Shown piece after piece: positions 15,897 to 64,000 of a stretch of DNA of 64,000 bases. The translations under genes were made by a program, and so were the position numbers. The stretch comes from Vandiemenella viatica (lineage: Eukaryota; Arthropoda; Insecta; Orthoptera; Morabidae): NCBI GenBank assembly GCA_031002005.1, contig CM061921.1, positions 123,844,597-123,908,596 on the forward strand, read 5' to 3'. The notes beneath the pieces are model-generated. The model made no database searches. It had not been told where the DNA came from and worked only from the letters and a program-made list of their open reading frames with translations. The stretch's first letter is position 1. The number at the start of each line of letters is the position of its first letter.

Positions 15897-16332
15897 TGAA
15901 GTGAACTACACTTAACGGTTCCTTGAAGTTTATTACTCGGTACACAATACAACAGGTAAACCATAAACAAATGTGGGTACAGTTATCAGAAGACCATCGA
16001 GAATTTCAGCCTGGTCCTGATCCGGGGTAGAGTGACGGCTTCTACTTCTCGCGAACTTCCGGTGGTCTTCTGTAGTTGACGCTGGTTCAGCGGTCAGGCT
16101 GGAACTGGCGGTGGAGTGGCCGGCTACGCTTATATAGGCGGCCTGACGCAGGAATTCCGTTGTGTGGTAGTACGGCGACCTCTGTAAGAAATAGTCCCAC
16201 TTAGCTTCTAGATGATTCTATTTGTTTTCCTGGTTTGTTTTGCGCCTGTTTGGAGTCGTATATGTATCCCGGCGTGCAGGCGCGTTGTGTGTGAGGTCTG
16301 CCTGGCAGGGGCCTTTACTGGCAGACTGAACA
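15897..16332 (-). repeat. 3' LTR of the Mag-like gypsy element
   Basis: On the minus strand it runs TGTTCAGTCTGCC to AGTTCACTTCA. TATATAA lies at 16130-16136 and AATAAA at 15929-15934, giving a plausible U3-R-U5 order. The last ~115 nt of the pol frame lie within its U3. Confidence 0.93.
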
Positions 16333-19046
16333 TACCTCCCTCCCGGGGGGGGGGGGGTGGAAGCGATGTCTGCGACGTCTGCGACGTCTGCGAGGTCGTC
16401 TGCCGCGGCGCCCTGGAGCAGACTATGAAGGCTACCTCCAGGGGAATACGGAGCTGTTCCCCTGGCAATGCGTGCCGACCTGCGTCGTGGTGCAGGTTGT
16501 GGTGGAGGTACTTGTGGAGCTAACGGCATCGGTTCGTCGGCGTCGATGGCCGGGGGCTGTACGGGGGGCGCTGAAGATGGTCCCCGCAGGTGGTCGAGAG
16601 GCTGCGGCTGAAGGGTGTCGGAGCGACCGACAGGTTGTGGCGTCGTTGGTGGCACTGTAACTGTCCCTGAGCAACGGTTAGACGGCAGGAGTGGTGGAGG
16701 TGGCAGGGAAGGAGAGGAAGAAGTGGATGGCCGTGCCGTGGTGGAAGAGGACGGTGCCGTGGGGTAGCGGGGACGTAGTTGGTTTCGATGGCGTCGCACT
16801 ATCCGGCCATCCAGGCTGACGTCGAACAGTTGGCGGCCCCGGGGCCGCTGGATGACCCCCGGAAGCCAACCGGCCCGGGAGCCAAACCCGCGGGCCCAGA
16901 CTAGGGAGCCCGGGGTGAAACGGAATGGGCCCGAAGGTACCTGTACTTTGGGCGGGGGTAAGAGGAGATGGAGGAGAGTGCGAGGTTGGCGGCCATGCAG
17001 CAATTCCGCCGGGCTTTTGGCCCCCACTGGAGTGGTTCGATAGGAACTGAGGAAGAGTGTCAATGCCTCTTCGAGTTTGTGACTTGTGGTGTATTTAGTC
17101 ATTTGGGTTTTGAATGTTCTGACTAGCCGTTCCGCCTCCCCGTTAGATTGGGGGTGGAAGGGCGGGGTGAGGAGGTGTTGGATATTGTTGGCGGTACAGA
17201 AGGATAGGAATTCCCGACTTCGAAATTGCGGTCCGTTATCTGTGACGATAGCGTATGGTAATCCTTCGATGGAAAAGATCTTCGTGAGGGCTGAAATGGT
17301 GACCTCTGTGGTGATTGTGGAGCAACGGACGACATATGGGAAGTGGGAAAAGGCATCCGTCACTAGGAGCCACTGGTGGCCTAGGAATGGGCCAGCGAAG
17401 TCGAGGTGAATGCGTTCCCAGGGTCCGGACGGTGCCGGCCAGGAAAGGAACTTTTGAGGGGGGCGGGGCAGTTGTTGGGCACAGATGGTACAGCGCCGCA
17501 CCCTCTCCGTGACATCCGTGGTAAGGCCGATCCAGAATACATGGCGTCTGGCAAGGGATTTGGTGCGGGCAATTCCCCAGTGTCCTTGGTGGAGAGTTTG
17601 GAGGATTGTCGGTTGTAGGGATCTCGGAACGACGACCCTCGGGGTGGAATTTGGTTCTGTGCGGAGGAGCACTCCCTCTACTACTGAGAGCTGGTGGCGG
17701 ATGGAGTAGTAGAACTTGAGGTCTTGATGATGGCGTGGAGGGGAACGTGTTTGCCACCCGTGTTGGATGTGGTGTCGGATGACACGGAGGAGGGGGTCCT
17801 CCCCTGTGGCTGCCGCGACTTTTGAGGCCGTGACTGGAAATGTCTTCAGTGCTTCTTGTATGTCATCGTCGATCTGGAACACCAGAAGTTCCGACTTGTC
17901 GAAGGCAAGGTCTGGTCCCTGCGGTAGTCTGGATAAGGCGTCTGCATTGGCATGCCTGGAGGTGGTACGGAAATGCATGGTATATCTGAACTGGGACAGG
18001 AATAGTGCCCAACGCTGGATGCGGTGGGATGTTTTGGTAGGCAGACGTGTGGACGGATCAAATAGTGATAGGAGTGGCTTGTGGTCGGTAATGAGATGAA
18101 AAGAAATCCCATATAAAAGGGAATAGAATTTGGAGCAGGCAAAAATAATAGCTAGCGCCTCTTTCTCGATTTGAGAATATTTAAGCTGAGCAGCCGATAG
18201 GGCTTTGGAGATGTAAGCTACGGGGCGTTCCGTGCCATCTGGTAATTTATGAGACAGAACTGCCCCCACACCGTAATCGGATGCATCTGTGGCAAGTATC
18301 AAGGGGAGGTTTGGAGTGTATGGCATGAGGCATGCTGCGGACTTGAGCTGCTGTTTAAGGGTGTGGAATGCGGTCTCGCAAGCTGGGGTCCAACGGAACG
18401 GGACATTCTTGCGACAGAGGTGGTACAGGGGTGCTGCCACTTGTGCTGCTGAGGGTATAAATTTTCTGTAGTATGAAATCTTGCCTAAAAAAGATTTCAA
18501 CTGATGTAGATCCTGAGGCCGAGGTAAGTTGGAAATAGCGTCCACATAGGAAAATGCTGGGGAAATGCCTTCCTGAGCGATGATGTGACCCAGGTAGGAA
18601 ATGGATTGTTGAAAAAATTGACACTTGGAAAGGTTGCATTTCAATCCTGCTGCACGGAGGCGGAGGAAGAGTAGGCGGAGGTTGGTCATGTGTTCGGCAG
18701 CGGAGGGTCCCGTGACGACTATGTCGTCGAGATAGTTGATGCATCCCGGAATATCCTGGAGAAGTTGTTCGAGATACCGTTGAAAAATCGCTGGAGCACT
18801 GGCCAAGCCGAACATGAGCCGGTTGAGTTGGAAGAGGCCAGAGGGTGTGTTGATGACTGTGTATTGTCGGGACTGGATATCCAAAGGGATTTGAAGGTAT
18901 GCTTCTGCCAGGTCAATTTTTGTAAAGTAGGTACCTCCTGCTAGTTTACGGAAGAGGTCGTCCGGTCTCGGAAGTGGATAATCGTCTACCAGCAGATGCG
19001 GGTTGACGGTGGTCTTAAAGTCACCACAGAGACGTAAGCGGCGTCA
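16218..19046 (-). CDS. pol: gypsy Pol, C-terminal part: RT, RNase H, integrase
   Basis: Open from the TGA at 19044-19046 to 16218. Counting from the first Met (18884; 888 residues): RT palm YLDD at 51-54, RT thumb YLGHII at 97-102; RNase H with TDAS (D200), E near 241, TDHK (D267) and ADALSR (D314); integrase zinc finger H432, H435, C465, C468; catalytic core D495, D549 and E585 (D,D-35-E; VTDNGPQF and NGEAERLVRTF); GPY/F-like end at about 655-710; Pro/Ser-rich tail 710-850. RT residues upstream of that Met (CGDFK, FTKIDLAEAYLQI) are read from 19043 down. The enzyme would copy element RNA to DNA in cytoplasmic particles and integrate it in the nucleus. It is in the same frame as the gag-protease part at 20696-19044, so the only break is the TGA. 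A C13 run at about 16345-16357 near the C-terminus is a likely frameshift hot spot. Confidence 0.93.
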
Positions 19047-20696
19047 TGGCTTCTGAACTATGACCAACGGCGTGGCCCAGGGGCTGAACCGCACCGGCTG
19101 GAGGATCCCTTCGTCTTGGAGACGTTGAAGTTCTTCCTGAAGTAGTTGTTGAAGCGCTACGGGTACCTGGCGTGCCCGGAAGTATCGAGGCCGTACGTCC
19201 GGCTGGAGTTGGAGTGATGCTTCGAAGTCCTTTGCACAGCCGACGCCTGGTGAGAACAGGTCCTGAAACTCGGTGCAAAGGGCGTCCACTTCAGGAAAAG
19301 GAACATGCTGAGATACGAGGTGTATGTTATCCTCAATTGAAAATCCGAATAAGCGGAAGGCGTCCAGTCCAAATAAGTCTGCTGTGAGAGAACTGTTAAC
19401 TACTAAAAAGGGGACTGAACGATGTACAGACTTATACATGACGTTTGCTGTGAATTGACCCAGGAGTGCTATTTCCTGTTTGTTGTATGTCAGGAGGCGC
19501 TTGGGGGCCGGCGAGAGGGGGGGCGAGCCAATTTGCACATAAGTAGTATAATTAAGCAATGAGACTGCTGCTCCTGTGTCGACTTGTAGGCGCAGAGGCT
19601 TGCCATTGACCGTAACGTCAATAAAAAGTTTGGATGCAGTGGAAGTGTCTACCTGATTGATATCCATAGGTGCGCCGCTCAACCTGTCTTGGTAAGACCC
19701 TGGGCGGCGAGAGCCGGGATTGGCATTGGTGGTGTTGGTGCGGCAGACGGACGCCAGGTGTCCTTCCTTGCCGCAACGTGAGCATTCAGCCCAACGATCC
19801 GGAAAATTTTCCCTCTCATGTGCTGAGTAACAGGTGGGGCAGGAGGGCAGGCGAAGCGGGCTGCGGCGTCGGCGCTGCGGGATCCGCTGCTGCTGCCGAG
19901 ACTTGGTGCCCCGGCCGGAACGGGTCGGTTCGATGTCCTTCTGAGGAAGCGGTCCCCGGTTGTGGTGTCGGGAGGAGAGCGACTGGGAGCTCTGGATGGC
20001 GGCGACGTCCTGTGTGTCCTCTACGTCGGTTCGGATTGCGGCCACATCCGCCCAGGACTCCAGGCGGCGATCTGCGGCCGTAGATATTTCGAATTTGTAG
20101 GCAAGTTCGATGACCTGCTCCAGGGATGGGTCCTCTAACTTGAGGGCGTCATGCCGGAGTGCGGCATCTGGTGCAGCCTGTATGATGTGATCACGCACCA
20201 TGTCGTCGGCGTAGGATTCGTGGGAACAACGAGTTTGAAACTTACATTTTCTGCTAAGGCCTTGGAGTTCGGCCGCCCACTGGCGATACGTCTGATCGGG
20301 CTTCTTCCGGCATTGATAGAATTCGACGCGGGCCGCGACGACATGGTACCGGCGTCTGTATGCATTCAGTGTCGTACAGATGGTCGTGAAGGTGAGGGTG
20401 TCGGGGTCTTGTGGCTGAAGTTTGGTGACATACATCTTCGATTGGTTCCAGGAAAGGAAATATGCACGTTGGTCTTCTTCTTTGGTTCTGTGGTGAATTG
20501 CGAAGTGTTGTCTTATGCGCTTCTCGTAGGTCTCCCATTCCTCGACGTCGTCGTTGAATGCTGGGAACGGAGGCGGGGCCGTGGGTTGGCGGAGATTCCT
20601 GACTTCCGCAATCAGTTGTCTCTGAGATTCGAAGAACTGATGTAGAAGTCCTTGGAGGAACTGTTGCCATTCCGTAGGTGCTGCTGGCGTAGCCAT
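19044..20696 (-). CDS. gag-pol: gypsy Gag, protease and start of RT
   Basis: 550 codons from an ATG 36 nt inside the 5' LTR. Residues about 45-205 are a retrotransposon Gag domain (WETYEKRIRQHF, FYQCRKKPDQTYRQWAAEL). A basic stretch lies at 255-285, followed by two zinc-binding motifs: a CPTC-x3-H-type segment from C286 and a CCHC knuckle C305-x2-C308-x4-H313-x4-C318. The aspartic protease has VDTGAAVS at 372-379 (DTG 373-375) and LFGLDAF at 441-447. RT begins at about 485-550 (W540-ATPLV). The frame then meets TGA in place of the usual Asp/Asn/Gly after KP and continues unchanged in phase. Role: particle formation, RNA binding and polyprotein cleavage. The stop is probably inactivating. Programmed readthrough at this site would be unusual because it lies inside RT. 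Confidence 0.92.
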   Translation of the reverse strand: MATPAAPTEWQQFLQGLLHQFFESQRQLIAEVRNLRQPTAPPPFPAFNDDVEEWETYEKRIRQHFAIHHRTKEEDQRAYFLSWNQSKMYVTKLQPQDPDTLTFTTICTTLNAYRRRYHVVAARVEFYQCRKKPDQTYRQWAAELQGLSRKCKFQTRCSHESYADDMVRDHIIQAAPDAALRHDALKLEDPSLEQVIELAYKFEISTAADRRLESWADVAAIRTDVEDTQDVAAIQSSQSLSSRHHNRGPLPQKDIEPTRSGRGTKSRQQQRIPQRRRRSPLRLPSCPTCYSAHERENFPDRWAECSRCGKEGHLASVCRTNTTNANPGSRRPGSYQDRLSGAPMDINQVDTSTASKLFIDVTVNGKPLRLQVDTGAAVSLLNYTTYVQIGSPPLSPAPKRLLTYNKQEIALLGQFTANVMYKSVHRSVPFLVVNSSLTADLFGLDAFRLFGFSIEDNIHLVSQHVPFPEVDALCTEFQDLFSPGVGCAKDFEASLQLQPDVRPRYFRARQVPVALQQLLQEELQRLQDEGILQPVRFSPWATPLVIVQKP

Positions 20697-20732
20697 GATG
20701 GTCGAGAGTTCTTATCCCAACCTTGTCGCCAC

Positions 20733-55040: not shown

Positions 55041-55616
55041 CCTCAGGTAACATTTTAATAGAGAGAAAGAAAGAAACAGGCTGTACGGCTCTTCGTCGCC
55101 GAGTAGCCGATGTCCCTATGATGTTACAGTCACGAAATGTAGTTCACAACCGTAATGTGAGTTTCCAGTATCAGTATAGTTAAATTTAATAGTCTAAATA
55201 AACTTTCATGAGAAGGCTCATTTCCTCAATATACAGTTGGAAGATTCCTGAGAAATTGGTTAGATTTCATGTATATGACAAGAAATCCAATAATTTCTAA
55301 CCGGCTAAATGTTAACAAGGATACACGTGCAGTGAGGGGACTGAATGTCATGGGTATAAATGAGGCAGCTATATTTATTTCGTAATTACCGCAGAACCCA
55401 GTCTGTAAGTGATATCTTAAAGAGTTGGTTGAGAGTAGGTTTAATAGAGTGCTGTTGATAAGGGGTGGCTGGATAAGAAAGGTTTGACGTTAAACTGCAG
55501 TAGCTCCTCGTTTCCGGCACAAATTATTATTTGTAGGTAAGAACTACAATAAATTATCGAGTGATTAGCTTCAACACCAGCTGAGTAAAATCAATAAGAG
55601 CAATCATGTCTTTATA

Positions 55617-56470
55617 CAGGGCGTTCGCCGGGAAACGCAACCCACTGTTAGCGCTACAAGGAAGAAACTGCTCCCGGCGAGCGAGCGCTCAGTTTCCGGC
55701 ATTGTTCGACCGTCGGCCGCGGACTATTTCATAATAATTACGCTTCATAAACTTCATAAACTTGTGTGCTAAGCATTTAAATGTGACGTAATTCATTAGC
55801 TTACCTTATAAAAGATGCTGGAAGTGTTGACCCTCTTGTGTAATGCACATTTCACATCTTCTGAACATATTTCGAGACACACGCTGCCCTAACTGACTTA
55901 ATGATTTTTTGGGTGACTGTTCTAGTCGAAAAGCGATATCGTCAATTTTCTCCTCTGTGAGAATATGGTTGACCGATAGTCTCTTTTTGTTAAAAAATGA
56001 ACCCGTTTCTCTTACTTTTTTAACCAGACGCAGAATTGTTGATTTAGCTGGCAGTAAAGCGCCAGGAAATTCGCGACGAAATTTACTGCGACACTTTTTA
56101 AACGACTTCTTCTTCACATATGTATCGTAGAGAAATATTCTTTGTTGCAAACTGTAACGTACCATAATTTTACTCACACTCAAACACAGTACAGATTAAT
56201 AAGAGTATGAATCCCCAAACCAGCCAAACCGCAAAGAAACGTTTATTCACAACACTGATTAATAAGAGACTGAAGTCACAAACTATCTACAATGCAAAGA
56301 AACCGTTCTTAACAATGTAAGGGTCACTGCACTGCACTGTTGGGGCAGCGGAGGTGTTAAACAGTGCGGTGATTCACGGTGGCGTGTGGCGGAAACTGCT
56401 GGCTCGACTGACCGAGCAAGTTGCCGACGGCAACAGACTGGGAGGGTAGCGTTTTCCGGCGAACGCCCTG
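55617..56470 (-). mobile_element. 854-bp TA-target DNA transposon, internally deleted
   Basis: Inverted repeats CAGGGCGTTCGCCGG-AAACGC (55617-55639 and complement ending 56470) with TA outside each end (55615-55616 and 56471-56472), the pattern of the IS630/Tc1/mariner superfamily. It contains one frame, 56183-55806, for a shortened transposase. It interrupts the APE domain of a plus-strand LINE. Confidence 0.88.
55806..56183 (-). CDS. truncated transposase: helix-turn-helix joined to C-terminal tail
   Basis: 125 residues. 1-60 (RYSLQQRIFLYDTYVKKKSF, CRSKFRREFPGA, STILRLVKKVRETGS) form a DNA-binding helix-turn-helix like the DUF4817-type N-terminal domain of insect transposases. 60-92 (LTEEKIDDIAFRLEQSPKKSL) is the second helical part. 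After residue about 97 it passes abruptly to NMFRRCEMCITQEGQHFQHLL, which resembles the extreme C-terminus of the same enzymes. The DDE core is missing, so the protein could bind ends but not cut. Alternative: a small derivative maintained by a full-length copy elsewhere. Confidence 0.7.
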   Translation of the reverse strand: MSVSKIMVRYSLQQRIFLYDTYVKKKSFKKCRSKFRREFPGALLPAKSTILRLVKKVRETGSFFNKKRLSVNHILTEEKIDDIAFRLEQSPKKSLSQLGQRVSRNMFRRCEMCITQEGQHFQHLL

Positions 56471-56472
56471 TA

Positions 56473-56960
56473 CGTGTTGACTTAAACGCCAGGCATGGTG
56501 ACGCCTCAATATCAGGGGAATTTGTCGAATTCGGAGGACAATTTAGAAACCAAAATGGGAAGAAATTTAGATAGTGTGCTACTTTTAACAAATTGAAGAT
56601 CACTAATTCAGGAAGAGAGATATTCACAAGTACACTTAGAGTGCTACAGGAAACCGATCACTAATAGATTACCTAATCGCAAATGATAGAATTTGTAACC
56701 AAATTGAGAATGTCCGTGCACACCGAGGAAGTGATATATACTCAGACCACTGTATAGTGGTTGCAACGATTCCAATGGTTGAAAAACGGAATAAAGTAAG
56801 ACCAAACTCAGACACACACTACTGTGCCTACTAGAACAAAAAAAATATTAAAAAACTACATCAAACTCGATTACAAGTGCTTTTTTAATGCTACTAATGG
56901 TGGAAGATGTTAATAAATAATGACAGAATATAAGGGAAGGGAAGAAAAAGAATCATAGGA
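56473..56960 (+). pseudogene. LINE APE endonuclease segment
   Basis: The plus strand reads DLNARHGD (just after the DNA transposon; GDxNA-type catalytic block), FGGQFRNQNGKKF, ATFNKLKITNSG, then in another frame IDYLIANDRICNQI and VRAHRGSDIYSDHCIVVATI (56660-56770; SDH catalytic motif). The domain order is that of RTE-type LINEs. It is interrupted on the left at 55617-56470 and on the right at 56961, and continues at 63629 with the pre-RT linker. The sequence 55041-55614 upstream is probably earlier APE sequence but no motif is clear. Confidence 0.72.
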
Positions 56961-57171
56961 CCAGCAGTGTTAATACCTTTTTTAAAACACAAAATTCACT
57001 TTTCGTCACCAGAGGGCACACCAACCGATGTCGCTAGTGTCGCCCGTATGACGTCACTAGTTCACCAACCCGCCACCAGAGGGCGCCACCTATCAAACGC
57101 ACGGCTTGTCACCACCCGGCCTACGCCGCTAACCTCAATTTGCAGGGCTATTTCTGGGCTGTACAGCTAAC

Positions 57172-57270
57172 CTATGACGCGACAGCAGGATCCTCAGTCT
57201 TAGGATTTCTCACACAACACCCCCGCGGGCGAACGTCACAGACCGCTACACAACAAGTGTACCACGCCAT
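57172..57270 (-). CDS. 32-codon frame, possible THAP first exon (left arm)
   Basis: MAWYTCCVAVCDVRPRG followed by CCVRN and an acidic end. C-x4-C near the N-terminus resembles the start of THAP zinc fingers used by P-element-type transposases. No His/AVPTIF half is present, so it would need splicing to a missing exon. The mirror copy at 63315-63413 differs by one residue. Speculative. Confidence 0.25.
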   Translation of the reverse strand: MAWYTCCVAVCDVRPRGCCVRNPKTEDPAVAS

Positions 57271-57871
57271 CTAATTTTCATCGCATATTAGCGACATCAC
57301 AAGCTACCGCTATGAACCATGATTTTCATTAGGGAATGCGGTTGCTTGCCGGTGCTATTTCAGAATCATGTGTCTGGTGTCTATCCTCAACGATGCATTC
57401 TAAAATAGGAAAATACGTCGTCTGTTCGAGTTATATTACGCGAAAATCGAAAATTTTGTTTTCATCCTGGCCGAACAGAAAAATTGCTTGACTTGTTGTA
57501 ATTAAATAAAAAAAATAAGTTAGAGACGATTTAAAAGCATAATTTTTCCTTTAAAATACGTTAACGGCCTAAATGGAAAAACGTCATTAACTCAGCATGA
57601 AATTTCGGTTGACGGAGAAGTTAACGATAGCCGCGACAAATTAAAAATTCATTCACAGACAAAGGTATGGAAAAACAACCGCTTTTTGAGTTCTGGAACA
57701 TGATACATACTTTAAGTTTATAGAAGTTTCTTGAGCTCAACAGCAGATCGGTGGATCACATGTTCTGACATTTGGAGTACGAACAGCACTAGAAGAACAC
57801 AAAAATTTTCTCATTGGGCATTAATAATGCTACATAGACCAATTTAACATAGACTGCGTCGTTTCTCTCAA

Positions 57872-58171
57872 GTGATCCTGAGACAACGAATACTGTATTG
57901 TCAGAACAGCGTGATACAAGCCTTAAAATCAGGTAAAAAATGTATAGGAAGCATAAGAGCATACACCAGCTCAAAGGCTAGAAAAACCCGCATCAACACT
58001 TGGGTAGCCAGTCATTGTGAAAGCTCAAAGTCCAGTATTAGTCGCTATTCGGAGCGTATCATTACGGATTCACTGGCGTGGAATGTGCGCGTCATGTTTT
58101 ACACTGCTTGCTGGTATAAATTAGAGATCCCTCTACAATCCTTATTACCATACCTGCAATTTTCTTCCTAG
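57872..58171 (+). CDS. 99-residue frame in left arm, unknown
   Basis: It begins MILRQRILYCQNSVIQALKS and is rich in Ser/Lys/Arg (SIRAYTSSKARKTRINTW). No domain recognised. It is conserved with the copy at 62424-62723 (minus), but both come from the duplicated arm, so this is not independent evidence for selection. Confidence 0.25.
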   Translation: MILRQRILYCQNSVIQALKSGKKCIGSIRAYTSSKARKTRINTWVASHCESSKSSISRYSERIITDSLAWNVRVMFYTACWYKLEIPLQSLLPYLQFSS

Positions 58172-59009
58172 GACCTTCGAAGAGCATTTCGTCAAGTCTT
58201 ATTGATATTTCCAATTATCACACTTTATTAATTGTTTAGTTACCATAAAATTAACTTTTTAGCAGAATGTCATCACTTTCCATCAATAACACTGAGGAAA
58301 TCCGCTTGCTCGCTGTTAGCGTTCGTTATTAAATTTCTTCCTAGCATTTTGTCATGTGTTATTAATATATTGAACTATTTGAATTCATTAATTGTTAAAT
58401 TACCATAAATTAACTTCTAAAAATATTTTTTTTTTATTTTTTGGACAAAACTTTTTGTTGCCTTCTGCAAATCGTATTTTTGGCTCAAATAACAAGTCCT
58501 TACTGGGAAACCAACCCTCCCTCCTTCCCCCCACCTCACTCTTCTCTACATTATATCTTTGTATTTATTTAGCTGCCAGAATATACAAATTTATTGGGTA
58601 GGGGTTTCGTTAAATAAAAAACATAATTTCTTGGTAAATGATACAGATTTATTGAAATTTTAAAAATACATTTTATTGCATAATAATACACCATTCAATA
58701 CTTATGGTTCCATTCCATGTGTCATAGGCCTCTCTTGCCTTCACATCCTGACCGACCCTCCCCCTCCTTTTTACCTGATTCTTCACTTAATATCCATTTA
58801 TTGCCTTACACGTTATGAAATTCCATGCCAAAGCATGTATATCTTTAAACGATGCTAATATTATGAGATGAGAAATGTATTTGTGGGGATGACACATACT
58901 CTCTGTCACACATTGCTGTGAATAACATAGACGTGCAACTTACGGGGGTATCTAAAACTCGATTGTCACGAGAGAAGAAAGAATTCATATCAACATCAAA
59001 TCCCAGCAT

Positions 59010-59200
59010 CTTGACAGTGGCTCAGTGGTTACGGCGTCTGACTGGAGGTAGAAAGGTCCTTGGTTCGAATCCCTGTCTGGGCGGTGAATTTCCTAAGCTC
59101 TTAACCCACCTTCACCTCTGGCACAGATTGCTGTGTAATGTGAAGTACGCCAGAACGCTTCCGTGGCTCGGATTCCACGTTAAACTGTAGGTCTCTTCTA
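59010..59200 (+). mobile_element. tRNA-module repeat (left arm)
   Basis: GTGGCTCAGTGGTTACGGCG (A box-like) and TTGGTTCGAATCCC (B box), then CACCTTCACCTCTGG, GTGAAGTACGCCAGAACGC and CACGTTAAACTGTAGGTC. The same order is seen at 23880-24080 and 61411-61590, and the GTTAAACTGTAG block also occurs in the Helitrons. Confidence 0.75.
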
Positions 59201-59813
59201 AGGATAACAACTCTATGGTTGTGTACACTTTCAAAAGCAAAGATACTAGATTGAGGGGGAGCAAACAGTCAGCCAGTCGGATGAACAATTTTAATATCAC
59301 GATCGACTCTTGTCTCTGAGTTCAACATATTCCTCTATGCATATAAAACACAGCCGCACTCATTAAATGATATGTTTTAAGAAGGTATAAGGCAAATGGA
59401 AGTAGGTATGGGCAGTGTAGGTGAAACACGAGTGGTAATTGTAAAGAATATACAGCAAACAGTGAGAACAATACCTGATGAGGAGATGTACACACTTTTT
59501 CTATAGTTTCATTAACCCTGGAACAAGAAAAAATCCATCAGTAACAGCTACCAGGTACCAAACTGTTCACATTAGCATTGCCTCGCCTCTCACACACATC
59601 AGCCATCTTTGCCATCTAGTAGCATGTGCACAAGTACGCAACTGTTCACATCAGCATCATCTCATATCACCCACATAACAACAAGCCATCCAGTAACATG
59701 TGTCCCCTAGTACCACAAAGGCATGAGTAGATTCAAGAGCCTTTCTTAACACAGGCTGCAATGCAATGCAATACATTGGTTGCTCACTCACAGCTGCATA
59801 CGTCACAAAACAC

Positions 59814-59814
59814 A

Positions 59815-59858
<44 letters not shown>
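59814..59858. repeat. (CT)n(CA)n microsatellite
   Basis: CT units pass into CA units, followed by CATTAGTGGTGGAAATGAAC, which recurs next to a CA tract at 61351-61390. Confidence 0.9.
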
Positions 59859-60779
59859 TTAGTGGTGGAAATGAACAACACATCCTACATGTGGGCAGAC
59901 GAATGAAAGAATGCTATCACCATATTTACACTCTAGCAGCCTTCCCTTGCGCACTGCCTTTCAAGTCCAAGAACTGTGGACTCCATATTACAAAACTATA
60001 TGCACACAATGGTCTGACTTTGGGTTTCTAACACAAGTTATTCACTTCTCTTGTACATCCACTCATCACGATTTTTGCCCCGAAGGACATGTCGTGAACA
60101 ACGCGAGAAAAACAGTTCATAGCCCAAAACAAACGGCAGCAAACTATAAACAGAACAGTGAAATGGAAGAGTGCCTGAATTCCTGGAAATCTCTAAAGGC
60201 GAATGCAGGGAAAGAGACCTTCAAAAGTCCATGGTCAAATTCATAATGGTTTCTTGCTCAGCATCAGTTCTCACCACTTATGACGATAGTATCGACGAGG
60301 CACAAAGTCCTAAAAAAATAAAAACCAGATATGCTTCAAATACTAGAATTTTGGATGGTCGTTGAAATTTCACATGTGTAGCGACAGCAATGTGCCAGTA
60401 ATAATACACAGTAGACTGGGAAGTCACGATTGCCGCGACAAACACCTAATTTAAAAATTCATTCACAGACAAAGGTATGGAAAAAACACATCGCACACGA
60501 TAAAGTTGTCATAATGCTCTTAGCTAACTGATAATTTCATCGTCATCAAAACAGACATCATAACCCACATTTTCATAGCAGATCATCACACATTGACAAG
60601 TATCCAAAACGTCACCATAGGTACAGACACTAGTTCTATTACGCCGAAGATAGCACACACACTTGAACTGTCATAAATGGTTAGGTCATTCGTATATGAA
60701 AGTGTGTGTTTGGATATTTTATCCACTCACGCCTCATCACCTAAAGTCTAGTGTCCGATTGTGGTCATGGTCAACTTAG

Positions 60780-61160
60780 GCTCCAGACACCAACCAGAAT
60801 TATTCTACCAATATCCATTCTAACATCATTATACGCCATATACAGCCCCCAACACTCTTCCTATCTTCCAGTGACATCCAGCCCAGCTCCCTTATTATGT
60901 CACTTGTTGAATGTTTTCCATTAATAAATCTAGCTGCCCTCCTTTGCACCCTGCAAAAAATGTGGCCTCCATACTACACCACAATATGCAAGCAATGGTT
61001 TGACTGTGGGTTTGTACCCAAGTCCTTCGCTTCTCTGGACCACCCCCTCAGCACAGTCTCCATTAAATGTTTTTTCCCCGAAGTGCATATAGTGAAAAAC
61101 GTGAGAAACACACTTCGTATGCCAATACAAACAGCAATAAACTGTAAATAGCACAGTGAA
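60780..61160 (-). pseudogene. LINE RT C-terminal remnant
   Basis: The minus strand reads GYKPTVKPLLAYCGVVWRPH (61010-60950; YKTLVRPLLEYG-type block), then ELGWMSLEDRK (about 60895-60860), as in the C-terminal part of the LINE at 49200-49670. No catalytic region is present. A diverged second copy of part of it is at 59920-60180. Confidence 0.65.
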
Positions 61161-61410
61161 ATGGGAGAATGCCTAAGCCCTGAAACAATGGTTAGAAGCA
61201 CACATTCATGGTGAATATCATTCTATAACCATATATTTTGGACTCAAATCCACAGAGGACTCACGCACATACGCACATTTCCATGCCCACAGCGCGCTCG
61301 ACACTTCAACCAGCACCAAGATAGAACTCCCACAGAGGAAGAAGACACACTCACACATACACACACACACATTAGTGGAGGAAATGAACTGCACATCCCA
61401 ATACACACAC

Positions 61411-63622
61411 AACGTGGAATCCGAGCCACGGAAGCGTTCTGGCGTACTTCACATTACACAGCAATCTGTGCCAGAGGTGAAGGTGAGTTAAGGGCTTATG
61501 AAATTCACCGCCCAGACAGGGAATCGAACCGAGAACCTTTCTACCTCCGGTCAGACGCCTTAACCACTGATCCACTGTCAAGATGTTGAGATTTGATGTT
61601 TATATGAATTCTTTCATCTCTCGTGACATTCGAGTTTGAGATATCCCCGTAAGTTGCACGTCTATTTTATTTACAGCAATGTGTGACAGAGAGTATGTGT
61701 CACCCACATAATAACATTTCTCATCTCATAACATTAGCAACGTTTAAAGATATACATGCTTTGGCATGGAATTTCATAACGTGTAAGGCAATAAATGGAT
61801 ATTAAGTGAAAAATCAGGTAAAAAGGGGGGGGGGGGGGTGCCTGGATGTGAAGGCAAGAGAGACCTATGACACACATGGAATGGAACCATAAGTATTGAA
61901 TGGTGTATTATTATGCAATAAAATATATTTTAAAATTTCAATAAATCTGTATCATTTATCAAGAAATTATGTTATTTATTTAACGAAACCCCTACCCAAT
62001 AAATTGGTATATTCTGGCAGCTAAATAAAAACAAAGATATAATGTAGAGAAGAGTGAGGTGGGAGGGAGGGAGGGCTGGTTTTCCAGTAAGGACTTGTTA
62101 TTTGAGCCAAAAATACGATTTGCAGAAGGCAACAATAAATTTTGTCCAAAAAATGCAAAAAAAAATGTTTTTAGAAGTTAATTTATGGTAATTTAACAAT
62201 TAATGAATTCAATTAGTTCAATATATTAATAACACATGACAAAATGCTACGAAGAAATTTAATAACGAACGCTAACAGCAAGCAAGTGGATTTCATCAGT
62301 GTTATTGATGGAAAGTGATGAGTGACATTCTGCTAAAAAGTTAATTTTATGGTAACTAAATAATTAATAAAGTATGATAATTGGAAATATCAATAAGACA
62401 TGACGAAATGCTCTTCGAAGGTCCTAGGAAGAAAATTTCAGGTATGGTAATAAGGATTGTAGAGGGATCTCTAATTTATACCAGCAAGCAGTGTAAAACA
62501 TGACGCGCACATTCCACGCCAGTGAATCCGTAATGATACGCTCCGAATAGCGACTAATACTGGACTTTGAGCTTTCACAATGACTGGCTACCCAAGTGTT
62601 GATGCGGGTTTTTCTAGCCTTTGAGCTGGTGTATGCTCTTATGCTTCCTATACATTTTTTACCTGATTTTAAGGCTTGTATCACGCTGTTCTGACAATAC
62701 AGTATTCGTTGTCTCAGGATCACTTGAGAGAAACGACGCAGTCTATGTTAAATGGGTCTCTGTAGCATGGTTAATGCCCAATGAGAAATTTTTTGTGTTC
62801 TTCTAGTGCTGTTCGTACTCCAAATGTCAGAACATGTGATCCACCGATCTGCTGTTGAGCTCAAGAAACTTCTATAAACTTAAAGTATGTATCATGTTCC
62901 AGAACTCAAAAAGCGGTTGTTTTTCCATACCTTTGTCTGTGAATGAATTTTTAATTTGTCGCGGCTATCGTTAACTTCTCCGTCAACCGAAATTTCATGC
63001 TGACTTAATGACGTTTTTCCATTTAGGCCGTTAACGTATTTTAAAGGAAAAATTATGCTTTTAAATCGTCTCTAACTTATTTTTTTTATTTAATTACAAC
63101 AAGTCAAGCAGTTTTTCTGTTCGGCCAGGCTGAAAACAAAATTTTCGATTTTCGCGTAATATAACTCGAACAGATGACGTATTTTCCTATTTTAGAATGC
63201 ATCGTTGAGGATAGACACCAGACACATGATTCTGAAATAGCACCGGCAAGCAACCGCATTCCCTAATGAAAATAGCGGTAGCTTGTGATGTCGCTAATAT
63301 GCGATGAAAATAAGATGGCGTGGTACACTTGTTGTGTAGCGGTCTGTGACGTTCGCCCGCGGGGGTGTTGTGTCAGAAATACTAAGACTGAGGATCCTGC
63401 TGTCGCGTCGTAGGTTAGCCGTACATCCCAAAAATAGCCGTGCAAATTGAGGTTAGCGGCGTAGGCCGGGTGGTGACAAGCCGTGCGGTTGATAGGTGGC
63501 GCCCTCTGGTGGCGGGTTGGTGAACTAGTGACGTCACACGGGCGACACTATCGCCATCAGTTGGTGCTGCCGTCTGGTGGCGGCAAAGTGATCTTTGTGC
63601 TTCAAAAAAGGTATTAACACTA
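61411..63622 (-). repeat. right inverted arm
   Basis: Inverted copy of 56966-59182. It includes the tRNA-module repeat 61411-61590 (minus), a G-run (61827-61840) where the other arm has a C-rich CCTCCCCCTCC tract, the mirror 99-residue frame (62424-62723, minus) and the mirror 32-codon frame (63315-63413, plus). Confidence 0.88.
63315..63413 (+). CDS. 32-codon frame, possible THAP first exon (right arm)
   Basis: Same as the left-arm frame at 57172-57270 with Thr replacing Pro after CCVRN. It reads outward toward the element end, as does its mirror. The call rests only on the C-x4-C start. Confidence 0.25.
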   Translation: MAWYTCCVAVCDVRPRGCCVRNTKTEDPAVAS

Positions 63623-63628
63623 CTAGGA

Positions 63629-64000
63629 AAAGTAAGGGATTACTAATACGGAATGATTGGACAGGATAGACGGTAAAAGATAAAGAAACATTATAAAGAA
63701 AATCCCTTCAAAATAAATCCCAACAAGCAAAAGAAGAATGCATACAATTCAGAAATAATGCCAAAAAGGTAATCAGATCTTCATTTTGTTAAACGTGGGA
63801 CAATTTATAGCTAGTATAGAAAATGACGTATGTGGAAGACAAGACTTCACATACAAAACACAAACACATTTATCCAGTCGATTCATGTACAACATTGGAA
63901 GACGCAGGACTCCCTATCCTGTGGATAACATCTTCTTAGAAGAATTGCAATTGCTGTTGAGAAATATGAAAAATAGTTCAGCTTGCGGCCCTGACGGCAT
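63629..64000 (+). pseudogene. LINE ORF2 continuing into RT (runs off the edge)
   Basis: A Lys/Gln-rich linker (about 63700-63770) is followed, after frameshifts, by LLRNMKNSSACGPDGI at 63953-64000, the conserved Lys-x-x-Ser-x-GPDGI entry block of LINE RT. It is the continuation of the endonuclease at 56473-56960 across the inverted-arm element. Confidence 0.72.

What the first reader, a model, noticed from the sequence alone, without database searches (positions are those of the whole stretch)
56956..63628. 6.7-kb mobile element with 2.2-kb inverted arms and no recognised transposase
The two arms are near mirror copies, the outer ends begin with the same AGTGTTAATACC, a TAGGA sequence flanks both sides, and a host LINE goes from endonuclease to pre-RT linker across it. 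That is strong evidence for a discrete insertion. I could not assign it to any superfamily. It could be a foldback-type or long-TIR DNA transposon, and is the best candidate in the window for an undescribed element.
Basis: partly seen in the sequence, partly recalled or inferred. Interest (0 to 1): 0.75.

Follow-up and report, generated by a model that had tools for sequence, protein, structure and literature searches.

The report
Palindromic, gene-less relative of Polinton transposons
The insertion is a decayed, gene-less, mirror-image derivative of a Polinton (Maverick), a virus-like jumping element, and younger mirror-image Polintons elsewhere in the same genome suggest that such palindromes form before they insert.

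Summary
Eight uninterrupted host-LINE relatives fit a 6-bp target duplication, AGGAAA, whose left copy now reads AGGACC. The superfamily can be assigned. The ends are AG(C/T)AGT. The outer ~200 bp also bound copies in the same genome with pieces of type-B DNA polymerase, rve-chromo integrase and A32-like ATPase genes, two of them with perfect 6-bp TSDs. The arms keep a degenerate 3' end of that integrase gene. So it is a non-autonomous Polinton/Maverick in a large family. Arms pair within a copy in 7 of 7 cases. Two recent PolB-carrying Polintons of other subfamilies are end-to-end palindromes (11.5, 14.6 kb) with (AGT)2 ends and perfect 6-bp TSDs: palindromic Polinton DNA can integrate as such. 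I propose inverted duplication during protein-primed replication, integrase-mediated insertion, then decay and loss of the palindrome centre. New variant of a known kind.

The parts
56957..56962 (.). left target-site duplication, AGGACC (original probably AGGAAA)
   Evidence: empty-site alignment with 8 LINE relatives
63625..63630 (.). right target-site duplication, AGGAAA
   Evidence: empty-site alignment
56963..59181 (+). left arm
   Evidence: self-comparison, 95.15% to right arm
61411..63624 (-). right arm
   Evidence: self-comparison
59182..61410 (.). loop: inner part of the left arm whose mirror partner has been lost; it is mirrored in copy C6:32578214-32590224 (L014/L015)
56963..57164 (+). 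outer ~200 bp, left: the part shared with PolB/integrase-coding copies
   Evidence: L009, L010, L012, L013, L026
63423..63624 (-). outer ~200 bp, right
57006..57019 (+). CTCF-consensus-like motif 1 (1 mismatch)
57049..57056 (+). TGACGTCA (CRE-like)
57073..57086 (+). CTCF-consensus motif 2 (exact)
63499..63512 (-). CTCF-consensus motif 2 (exact), right arm
63529..63536 (-). TGACGTCA, right arm
63567..63580 (-). CTCF-like motif 1 (1 mismatch), right arm
58602..58700 (+). degenerate 3' end and 3' UTR of a Polinton integrase gene (sense reading inward), left arm
61895..61991 (-). same remnant, right arm (by position in the arm alignment)
   Evidence: alignment
59015..59181 (+). tRNA-like SINE (by eye) at the inner end of the left arm
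   Evidence: 5,083 first-look candidates genome-wide, 40 scored
61411..61577 (-). the same SINE, right arm
57322..58272 (+). arm block with fewer differences (13 of 951 vs 72 of 1,254 elsewhere): probable later gene conversion
56560..56956 (+). host LINE, left part (endonuclease C-end)
63631..64000 (+). host LINE, right part (pre-RT linker to RT start; continues into L029)

Best explanation
It is a non-autonomous palindromic Polinton (Maverick). Shown here: Polinton-type ends and 6-bp TSD, TIR shared with coding copies, integrase-gene remnant in the arms, palindromic form in other copies of the family, and Polinton palindromes of other subfamilies that are inserted whole with perfect TSDs. Inferred: a Polinton copied by its protein-primed PolB suffered a fold-back (snap-back) event, so that one end half was copied onto itself as an inverted duplication (for this family the integrase-proximal, right end). 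The resulting linear palindrome kept both TIRs, so PolB (replication) and the rve integrase (insertion, 6-bp stagger) of coding copies could still use it in trans. The lineage lost its genes, gained SINE and LINE pieces that were copied to both arms, and the copy in the window inserted into a LINE, lost the inner half of its right arm, and has since diverged, with one block probably kept alike by gene conversion.
For: Ends AG(C/T)AGT match the (AGT)2 motif and 6-bp TSD given for Mavericks in PMC8097293 (passages). Empty site in 8 LINE relatives. Same outer ~200 bp at both ends of a 15.2-kb (L012/L013) and an 11.7-kb (L009/L010) copy with PolB, ATPase or integrase pieces and perfect TSDs, and at the one end in hand of L026; PolB and integrase pieces have 5,614 and 2,225 protein relatives, best 120 of each listed. 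Integrase 3' end in the arms: 21 of 21 comparisons (related copies, so not independent) beat all 300 shuffles, narrowly for some; nhmmer E 8e-6, no hit in the reversed control. Arms are sisters within a copy in 7 of 7 pairs, support 0.944-1.000. Five contigs, i.e. four loci, have PolB in convergent mirrored pairs; both palindromes fetched to their ends (C1, C6) have (AGT)2 ends, unmirrored flanks beyond them and 6/6 TSDs. Coding machinery is abundant: 150 of 6,055 integrase candidates scored, all at 90% identity or more.
Against: The window element has no gene, and 15 Polinton protein pieces leave no tblastn trace at 1e-4 in the non-coding copies. Most of the arm (about 200-1,640 bp from the ends) matches nothing in the coding copies, so its origin is unknown. 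The C1 and C6 palindromes are other subfamilies: their end pieces show no match to the window TIR beyond the (AGT)2 start, and the one end of each tested lacks its motifs, so they show that the process occurs, not that it made this family. The window TSD alone is 4/6, and 2 of 11 copies with both ends in hand show no TSD (C4537; C8:1498, whose flanks are mirrored too). No replication intermediate or mobilisation was observed. Sister arms could also come from gene conversion after insertion.
Confidence: 0.7

Rival explanations
1. A Polinton deletion derivative whose TIRs grew step by step by recombination or gap repair between arms (as for Galileo), not by one fold-back replication event.
For: Galileo shows the same outcomes: final piece of the transposase ORF recruited into TIRs, and TE insertions that become part of both TIRs (PMC4168063, passages). 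Arm lengths vary between copies. One arm block looks converted. The whole-inserted palindromes belong to other subfamilies.
Against: Two young PolB-carrying Polintons are palindromic end to end and inserted whole with perfect TSDs, with one short unpaired centre each, so a stepwise route is not needed.
Confidence: 0.23
2. A member of another superfamily with long TIRs (hAT, P/Galileo, MULE, Foldback), or an undescribed superfamily.
For: End CAGTG/TAGTG also fits a hAT-like start (recalled); long arms resemble Galileo and Foldback.
Against: TSD is 6 bp (6 of 11 copies perfect), the same ends bound PolB/integrase genes, no Pfam match in 11 frames of the element, and no tandem arrays beyond dinucleotides in arms or loop (one search lists a few two-copy repeats).
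Confidence: 0.03
3. Assembly artefact: a mirrored read or missed adapter made the inverted arms.
For: Two other places (C8:1498 = L011, C3473 = L027/L028) have mirrored flanks as well and may be artefacts or larger inverted duplications.
Against: Window arms differ by 85 of 2,205 bases and the flanks are not mirrored; the empty site fits.
Confidence: 0.03

Closest known systems
Polinton/Maverick DNA transposons
   Same: (AGT)2-type ends, 6-bp TSD, TIR shared with copies carrying PolB, rve-chromo integrase and ATPase pieces
   Different: no genes; 6.7 kb, against 12.7-24.6 kb for intact vertebrate Mavericks; arms 2.2 kb, against TIRs of 46-1,447 bp (PMC8097293, passages)
Galileo (P superfamily, Foldback-like)
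   Same: extended TIRs that took up the end of the transposase gene and other TEs (PMC4168063, passages)
   Different: different superfamily and enzymes; TSD 6 bp here; no transposase match in the frames searched
Teratorn
   Same: virus-like giant transposon with long inverted repeats (PMC6431247, passages)
   Different: herpesvirus-piggyBac fusion of 41-182 kb; unrelated genes
Adenovirus-type defective genomes with inverted end duplications (recalled; one search listed papers, none read)
   Same: protein-primed linear replicon in which one end is duplicated in mirror image
   Different: extrachromosomal virus genomes; here the palindromes are integrated with TSDs

Membership tests
Polinton/Maverick | 6-bp target-site duplication | tested here: met
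   empty site in 8 LINE relatives; among 11 copies with both ends in hand, palindromic relatives included: 6/6 in 6, 5/6 in 1, 4/6 in 2 (the window is one), none in 2
Polinton/Maverick | end motif (AG)3 or (AGT)2 | tested here: met
   right end AGTAGT, left AGCAGT (one change) (motif from PMC8097293)
Polinton/Maverick | TIR shared with coding Polintons of the same genome | tested here: met
   L009/L010, L012/L013, L026
Polinton/Maverick | encodes PolB, integrase, ATPase, capsid proteins | tested here: not met
   no Pfam match in 11 frames, no tblastn trace; only a degenerate integrase 3' end at DNA level. Hence filed as a non-autonomous derivative, not as a Polinton proper
Polinton/Maverick | size 12.7-24.6 kb, TIR 46-1,447 bp (range of intact vertebrate copies) | tested here: not met
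   6.7 kb and 2.2-kb arms
hAT | 8-bp TSD (recalled) | tested here: not met
   TSD is 6 bp
P/Galileo | 7-8-bp TSD (recalled) and P-type transposase | tested here: not met
   6-bp TSD; no Pfam match in 11 frames; coding copies carry PolB and rve integrase pieces
Foldback (FB) | arms built of short tandem repeats (recalled) | tested here: not met
   only CT and AC/CA dinucleotide arrays, all in the loop
MULE | 8-10-bp TSD (recalled) | tested here: not met
Polinton/Maverick | protein-primed replication and integrase-driven insertion | not testable with these tools
   inferred from gene content of coding copies and from the 6-bp TSD

The most novel reading that the evidence does not exclude
Polintons in this genome recurrently produce defective, palindromic genomes by fold-back during protein-primed replication. 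These integrate like normal Polintons, and some lineages, such as the window's, lived on as gene-less parasites of coding Polintons: a genomic record of defective-interfering-like replicons of a virus-like transposon.
Probability: 0.45. Interest if true: 0.8.

Novelty: new variant of a known kind. Interest (0 to 1): 0.62.

Why it matters
To my knowledge, how Polintons replicate is inferred mainly from their genes. Inserted palindromes with perfect target duplications would be footprints of their DNA replication intermediates and make the protein-primed, strand-displacement model testable from genome sequence alone. They would also explain gene-less long-TIR repeats that annotation leaves unclassified, and show that a virus-like transposon breeds its own parasites.

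Tried and rejected
Viral-contig scan with a 25-base end pattern: 0 matches; genome-contig scan with an inner TIR 23-mer: 0 matches. Rfam and tRNA scans of the window: none. The 107-aa frame of the arms (57848-58171; the right-arm version 62427-62747 differs near its end) has no Pfam match and is not treated as a gene. A protein-level match of the integrase to the arms failed (one weak hit in the wrong part of the protein; over whole copies hits were like the reversed control); the remnant shows only at DNA level. Arm and loop matches to L009 around 1915-2345 fall in a LINE inserted in that copy. CTCF-like motifs: striking in the window (2 exact, expected 0.01; the two arms are copies, so one event) and present with at most 1 mismatch in 22 of 24 ends. 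Mean column identity is 0.887 (motif 2), 0.805 (motif 1), 0.751 (TGACGTCA) against 0.770 for the rest and 0.72 for the rest of the first 130 bases; windows just inside motif 2 score as high. The one C1 end and one C6 end tested lack the motifs. No function is claimed. Literature: exact phrases for non-autonomous Polinton/Maverick gave no paper (its 3 papers match only 'Polinton-derived'); the listings (12 of 31; 10 of 17; 23 of 23) show no title on palindromic Polintons. Repbase/Dfam were not available, so a catalogued consensus of this family may exist.
Full report
OBSERVATION. The arms exist: 56963-59181 pairs with 61411-63624 at 95.15% over 2,228 columns (alignment), with 85 substitutions in 2,205 aligned bases. 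The loop is 59182-61410. The window is base 123844597-123908596 of contig C8 of an unnamed 3.72-Gb genome. The outer 201 bp have 41 matches there, its own two ends included (40 of 350 first-look candidates scored), many in facing +/- pairs 1.4-15 kb apart. Of 11 frames of the element searched against Pfam none matched; its longest stop-to-stop frame is 124 aa.

EMPTY SITE. A search with the left LINE flank gave 40 matches, the window's own included (40 of 77 candidates scored). Of the nine foreign copies fetched (L031-L039), eight align across the junction and were used; L036 matched only the left part and was left out. The joined flanks, with one 6-bp copy removed, align with these eight without a gap at the junction; the window itself has a 30-column gap further left and L038 a 5-column gap six bases before the junction. 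The six target columns vary among relatives (L035 reads AGGAAA, L039 AGGAAG, L033, L034 and L037 AGAAAA, the others differ more), but at positions 5 and 6, where the window has CC on the left and AA on the right, they have A in 8 of 8 and 7 of 8. So the target was most likely AGGAAA and the left copy has changed by two bases.

WHICH FAMILY. Fetched copies fall into two sets. Coding: L012/L013 (15.2 kb), L009/L010 (11.7 kb, with a LINE and a Tc1-like frame inside, by eye) and L026 (one end in hand) share only the outer ~200 bp with the window at E 1e-8. They carry pieces of PolB (Pfam DNA_pol_B_2, E down to 1.4e-6), a Pox_A32-like ATPase (E 9e-4, below Pfam's cut-off) and an integrase with weak rve and chromo matches (E 0.0014 and 2.6e-5, below the cut-offs); 3 of 10 pieces and 6 of 8 had no Pfam match at 0.01. 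Capsid genes were not shown. Corresponding pieces recur among these loci, mostly at 61-98% identity, lower between what look like two paralogous copies of one frame in L010 and L013. Protein searches support the two enzymes: 5,614 relatives of the PolB piece (of the 120 listed, those with names are mostly insect proteins) and 2,225 of the integrase piece (nearly all 120 listed carry Pfam rve); in the PDB the integrase piece matches retroviral integrases (best E 7e-4). Non-coding: the window, L011, L014/L015, L018-L021 and L023-L025 share arm and in part loop sequence and show no trace of the 15 Polinton protein pieces at tblastn 1e-4. PMC8097293 (passages) gives (AG)3 or (AGT)2 ends, 6-bp TSDs and TIRs of 46-1,447 bp for vertebrate Mavericks; our ends begin AGTAGT/AGCAGT.

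TSD TALLY. Copies with both outer ends in hand: 11. Perfect 6/6: C8:1327 and C6:9397 (coding), C8:3075 (after moving the printed boundary by one base, read by eye), C6:18821 (read by eye), and the palindromic C6:27.76M and C1:187.3M, i.e. 6. One at 5/6 (C6:3257); two at 4/6 (window, C5:3085); two with none (C4537; C8:1498, where the flanks are mirrored too). Left out: C6:8820 (left end lost), C3473 (mirrored flanks), single-ended copies, and contig C8192 (the C6:27.76M locus again).

REMNANT OF THE INTEGRASE GENE. About 1,640-1,740 bp from each end, the arms match the last codons and 3' UTR of the integrase genes of L026, L012 and L009: 21 of 21 arm-gene comparisons (7 related copies x 3 related genes, so not independent) exceed all of 300 dinucleotide shuffles, in some L009 cases by 1-4 points only; nhmmer E 7.9e-6, 2.1e-4 and 4.7e-3, with no hit in reversed sequences. 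Read inward, the remnant is in sense orientation, which is how the integrase lies relative to the right end (the one far from PolB) of L012/L013. A protein-level match was not found. The rest of the arm, apart from the TIR, a SINE and a LINE-like fragment, matches nothing in the coding copies.

PALINDROMIC FORM. In L014/L015 (12.0 kb) the window's loop sequence is itself mirrored, with arms of about 5.5 kb including an inserted LINE on one side; in L019 and L020 the arms are 98.5-99.3% alike; L016/L017 is mirrored, at 77%, through its centre. So the window's loop is best read as the inner part of a longer arm that lost its partner. In a tree of an ~800-bp arm piece (17 sequences, three of them single arms), both arms of a copy are sisters in 7 of 7 pairs (support 0.944-1.000); within-copy identity is 94.3-100%, between-copy 88.6-95.4% (125 comparisons of at least 150 columns; one arm of C4537 joined from two pieces). 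In the window, block 360-1310 of the arm has 13 differences in 951 against 72 in 1,254 elsewhere (Fisher 3.6e-8; the block was chosen after seeing the data, so the p-value flatters): probably gene conversion after insertion.

RECENT PALINDROMES THAT STILL CARRY POLB. A PolB search scored 117 of 6,411 candidates. Five contigs hold two PolB matches in + then - order, 2.2-5.8 kb apart. C1:187306988-187318535 (11.5 kb) is a palindrome from end to end: 98.7% by BLAST, 10 substitutions in 3,996 aligned arm bases, ends AGTAGTGGG, TSD CTCGGC on both sides, flanks not mirrored. C6:27753763-27768364 (14.6 kb): 99.0%, 32 substitutions in 4,590, ends AGTAGTTATAG, TSD AATAAC on both sides. C8192 is the same locus as C6 on another contig, in reverse (same flank words and TSD). 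The centres of C6659 and C4698 are also mirrored and match neither L042 nor each other (not compared with C1; their ends were not fetched). So there are four loci; three centres were shown to be unrelated, the C1 centre is a different stretch by eye. The unpaired centre is 33 nt in C6 and of the same order in C1 by eye (the script's 64 is an upper bound). A palindrome that carries its own TSD and stops at the TIR was a palindrome when it inserted. Against a direct link: C1 and C6 belong to other subfamilies. Their PolB pieces are 70-82% identical to those of L012/L026 (one short stretch 60%), their end pieces have no match to the window's outer ~330 bp beyond the (AGT)2 start, and the one end of each tested lacks the CTCF/CRE motifs. 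They show that the process happens to Polintons in this genome, not that it made the window family.

MECHANISM. Shown: palindromic Polintons insert whole, with (AGT)2 ends and a 6-bp TSD; integrase and PolB matches, many with open frames, are plentiful in this genome (150 of 6,055 and 117 of 6,411 candidates scored). Inferred: the inverted duplication arises when a displaced single strand folds back and primes its own copying during protein-primed replication (the adenovirus parallel is recalled, not read here). C1 and C6 are left-end type (ORF, PolB, mirror); the window family is right-end type by its integrase remnant. Non-coding palindromes are then replicated and integrated in trans, pick up SINE and LINE fragments that are copied to both arms, and lose their centres. 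Galileo shows a similar outcome in another superfamily (PMC4168063, passages).

FAMILY SIZE. First-look candidates (not confirmed copies; 40 scored each): outer end 350, arm middle 887, loop 2,553, SINE 5,083. The one locus fetched for the loop (L040/L041) is again a palindrome with AGTAGTGTT ends and TSD GCAGGT/GCAGGT.

NOVELTY. Polintons are well known; long-TIR derivatives are known in other superfamilies. In the paper library I found no exact phrase for non-autonomous Polintons and no title on palindromic ones (listings only). Repeat catalogues could not be searched. I rate it a new variant of a known kind.

Noticed in passing
24 Polinton-type ends related to the window's, e.g. window 57006-57086 and 63499-63580: CTCF-consensus-like motifs (in most ends two, about 68 bp apart) around a TGACGTCA: CTCF-like with at most 1 mismatch in 22 of 24 ends, TGACGTCA exact in 20 of 24; one coding end (L010) has the module duplicated in tandem. 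Not clearly better conserved than the neighbouring columns, and absent from the C1 and C6 ends tested.
   Followed up: partly
positions 6-30 of the ends (L009-L028, L040, L041): Directly behind the nearly fixed AGTAG the sequence differs between subfamilies, yet the two ends of a copy look alike there; it could be the recognition segment of matching polymerase/integrase types.
   Followed up: no
L011 (C8:149805400-149810300) and contig C3473 (L027/L028): Here the flanks outside the ends are mirrored as well, with 0.24% and 1.65% substitutions between the halves compared: either assembly artefacts or larger inverted duplications.
   Followed up: partly
window 55615-56472 and L029: An ~860-bp stretch bounded by 29-nt inverted repeats, with a DUF4817 helix-turn-helix frame inside, lies left of the host LINE; a very similar stretch lies to its right in L029 (by translation).
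   Followed up: no
window 16221-20711 (-): LTR-retrotransposon-like region with two long open frames (941 and 555 aa: RT, RNase H, integrase, protease) and 49-62% GC against about 40% around it.
   Followed up: no
G000 genome-wide: Many integrase matches share the same score (a large block at 97%, another at 90%) and lack stops, which suggests recent bursts of coding Polintons in this genome.
   Followed up: no
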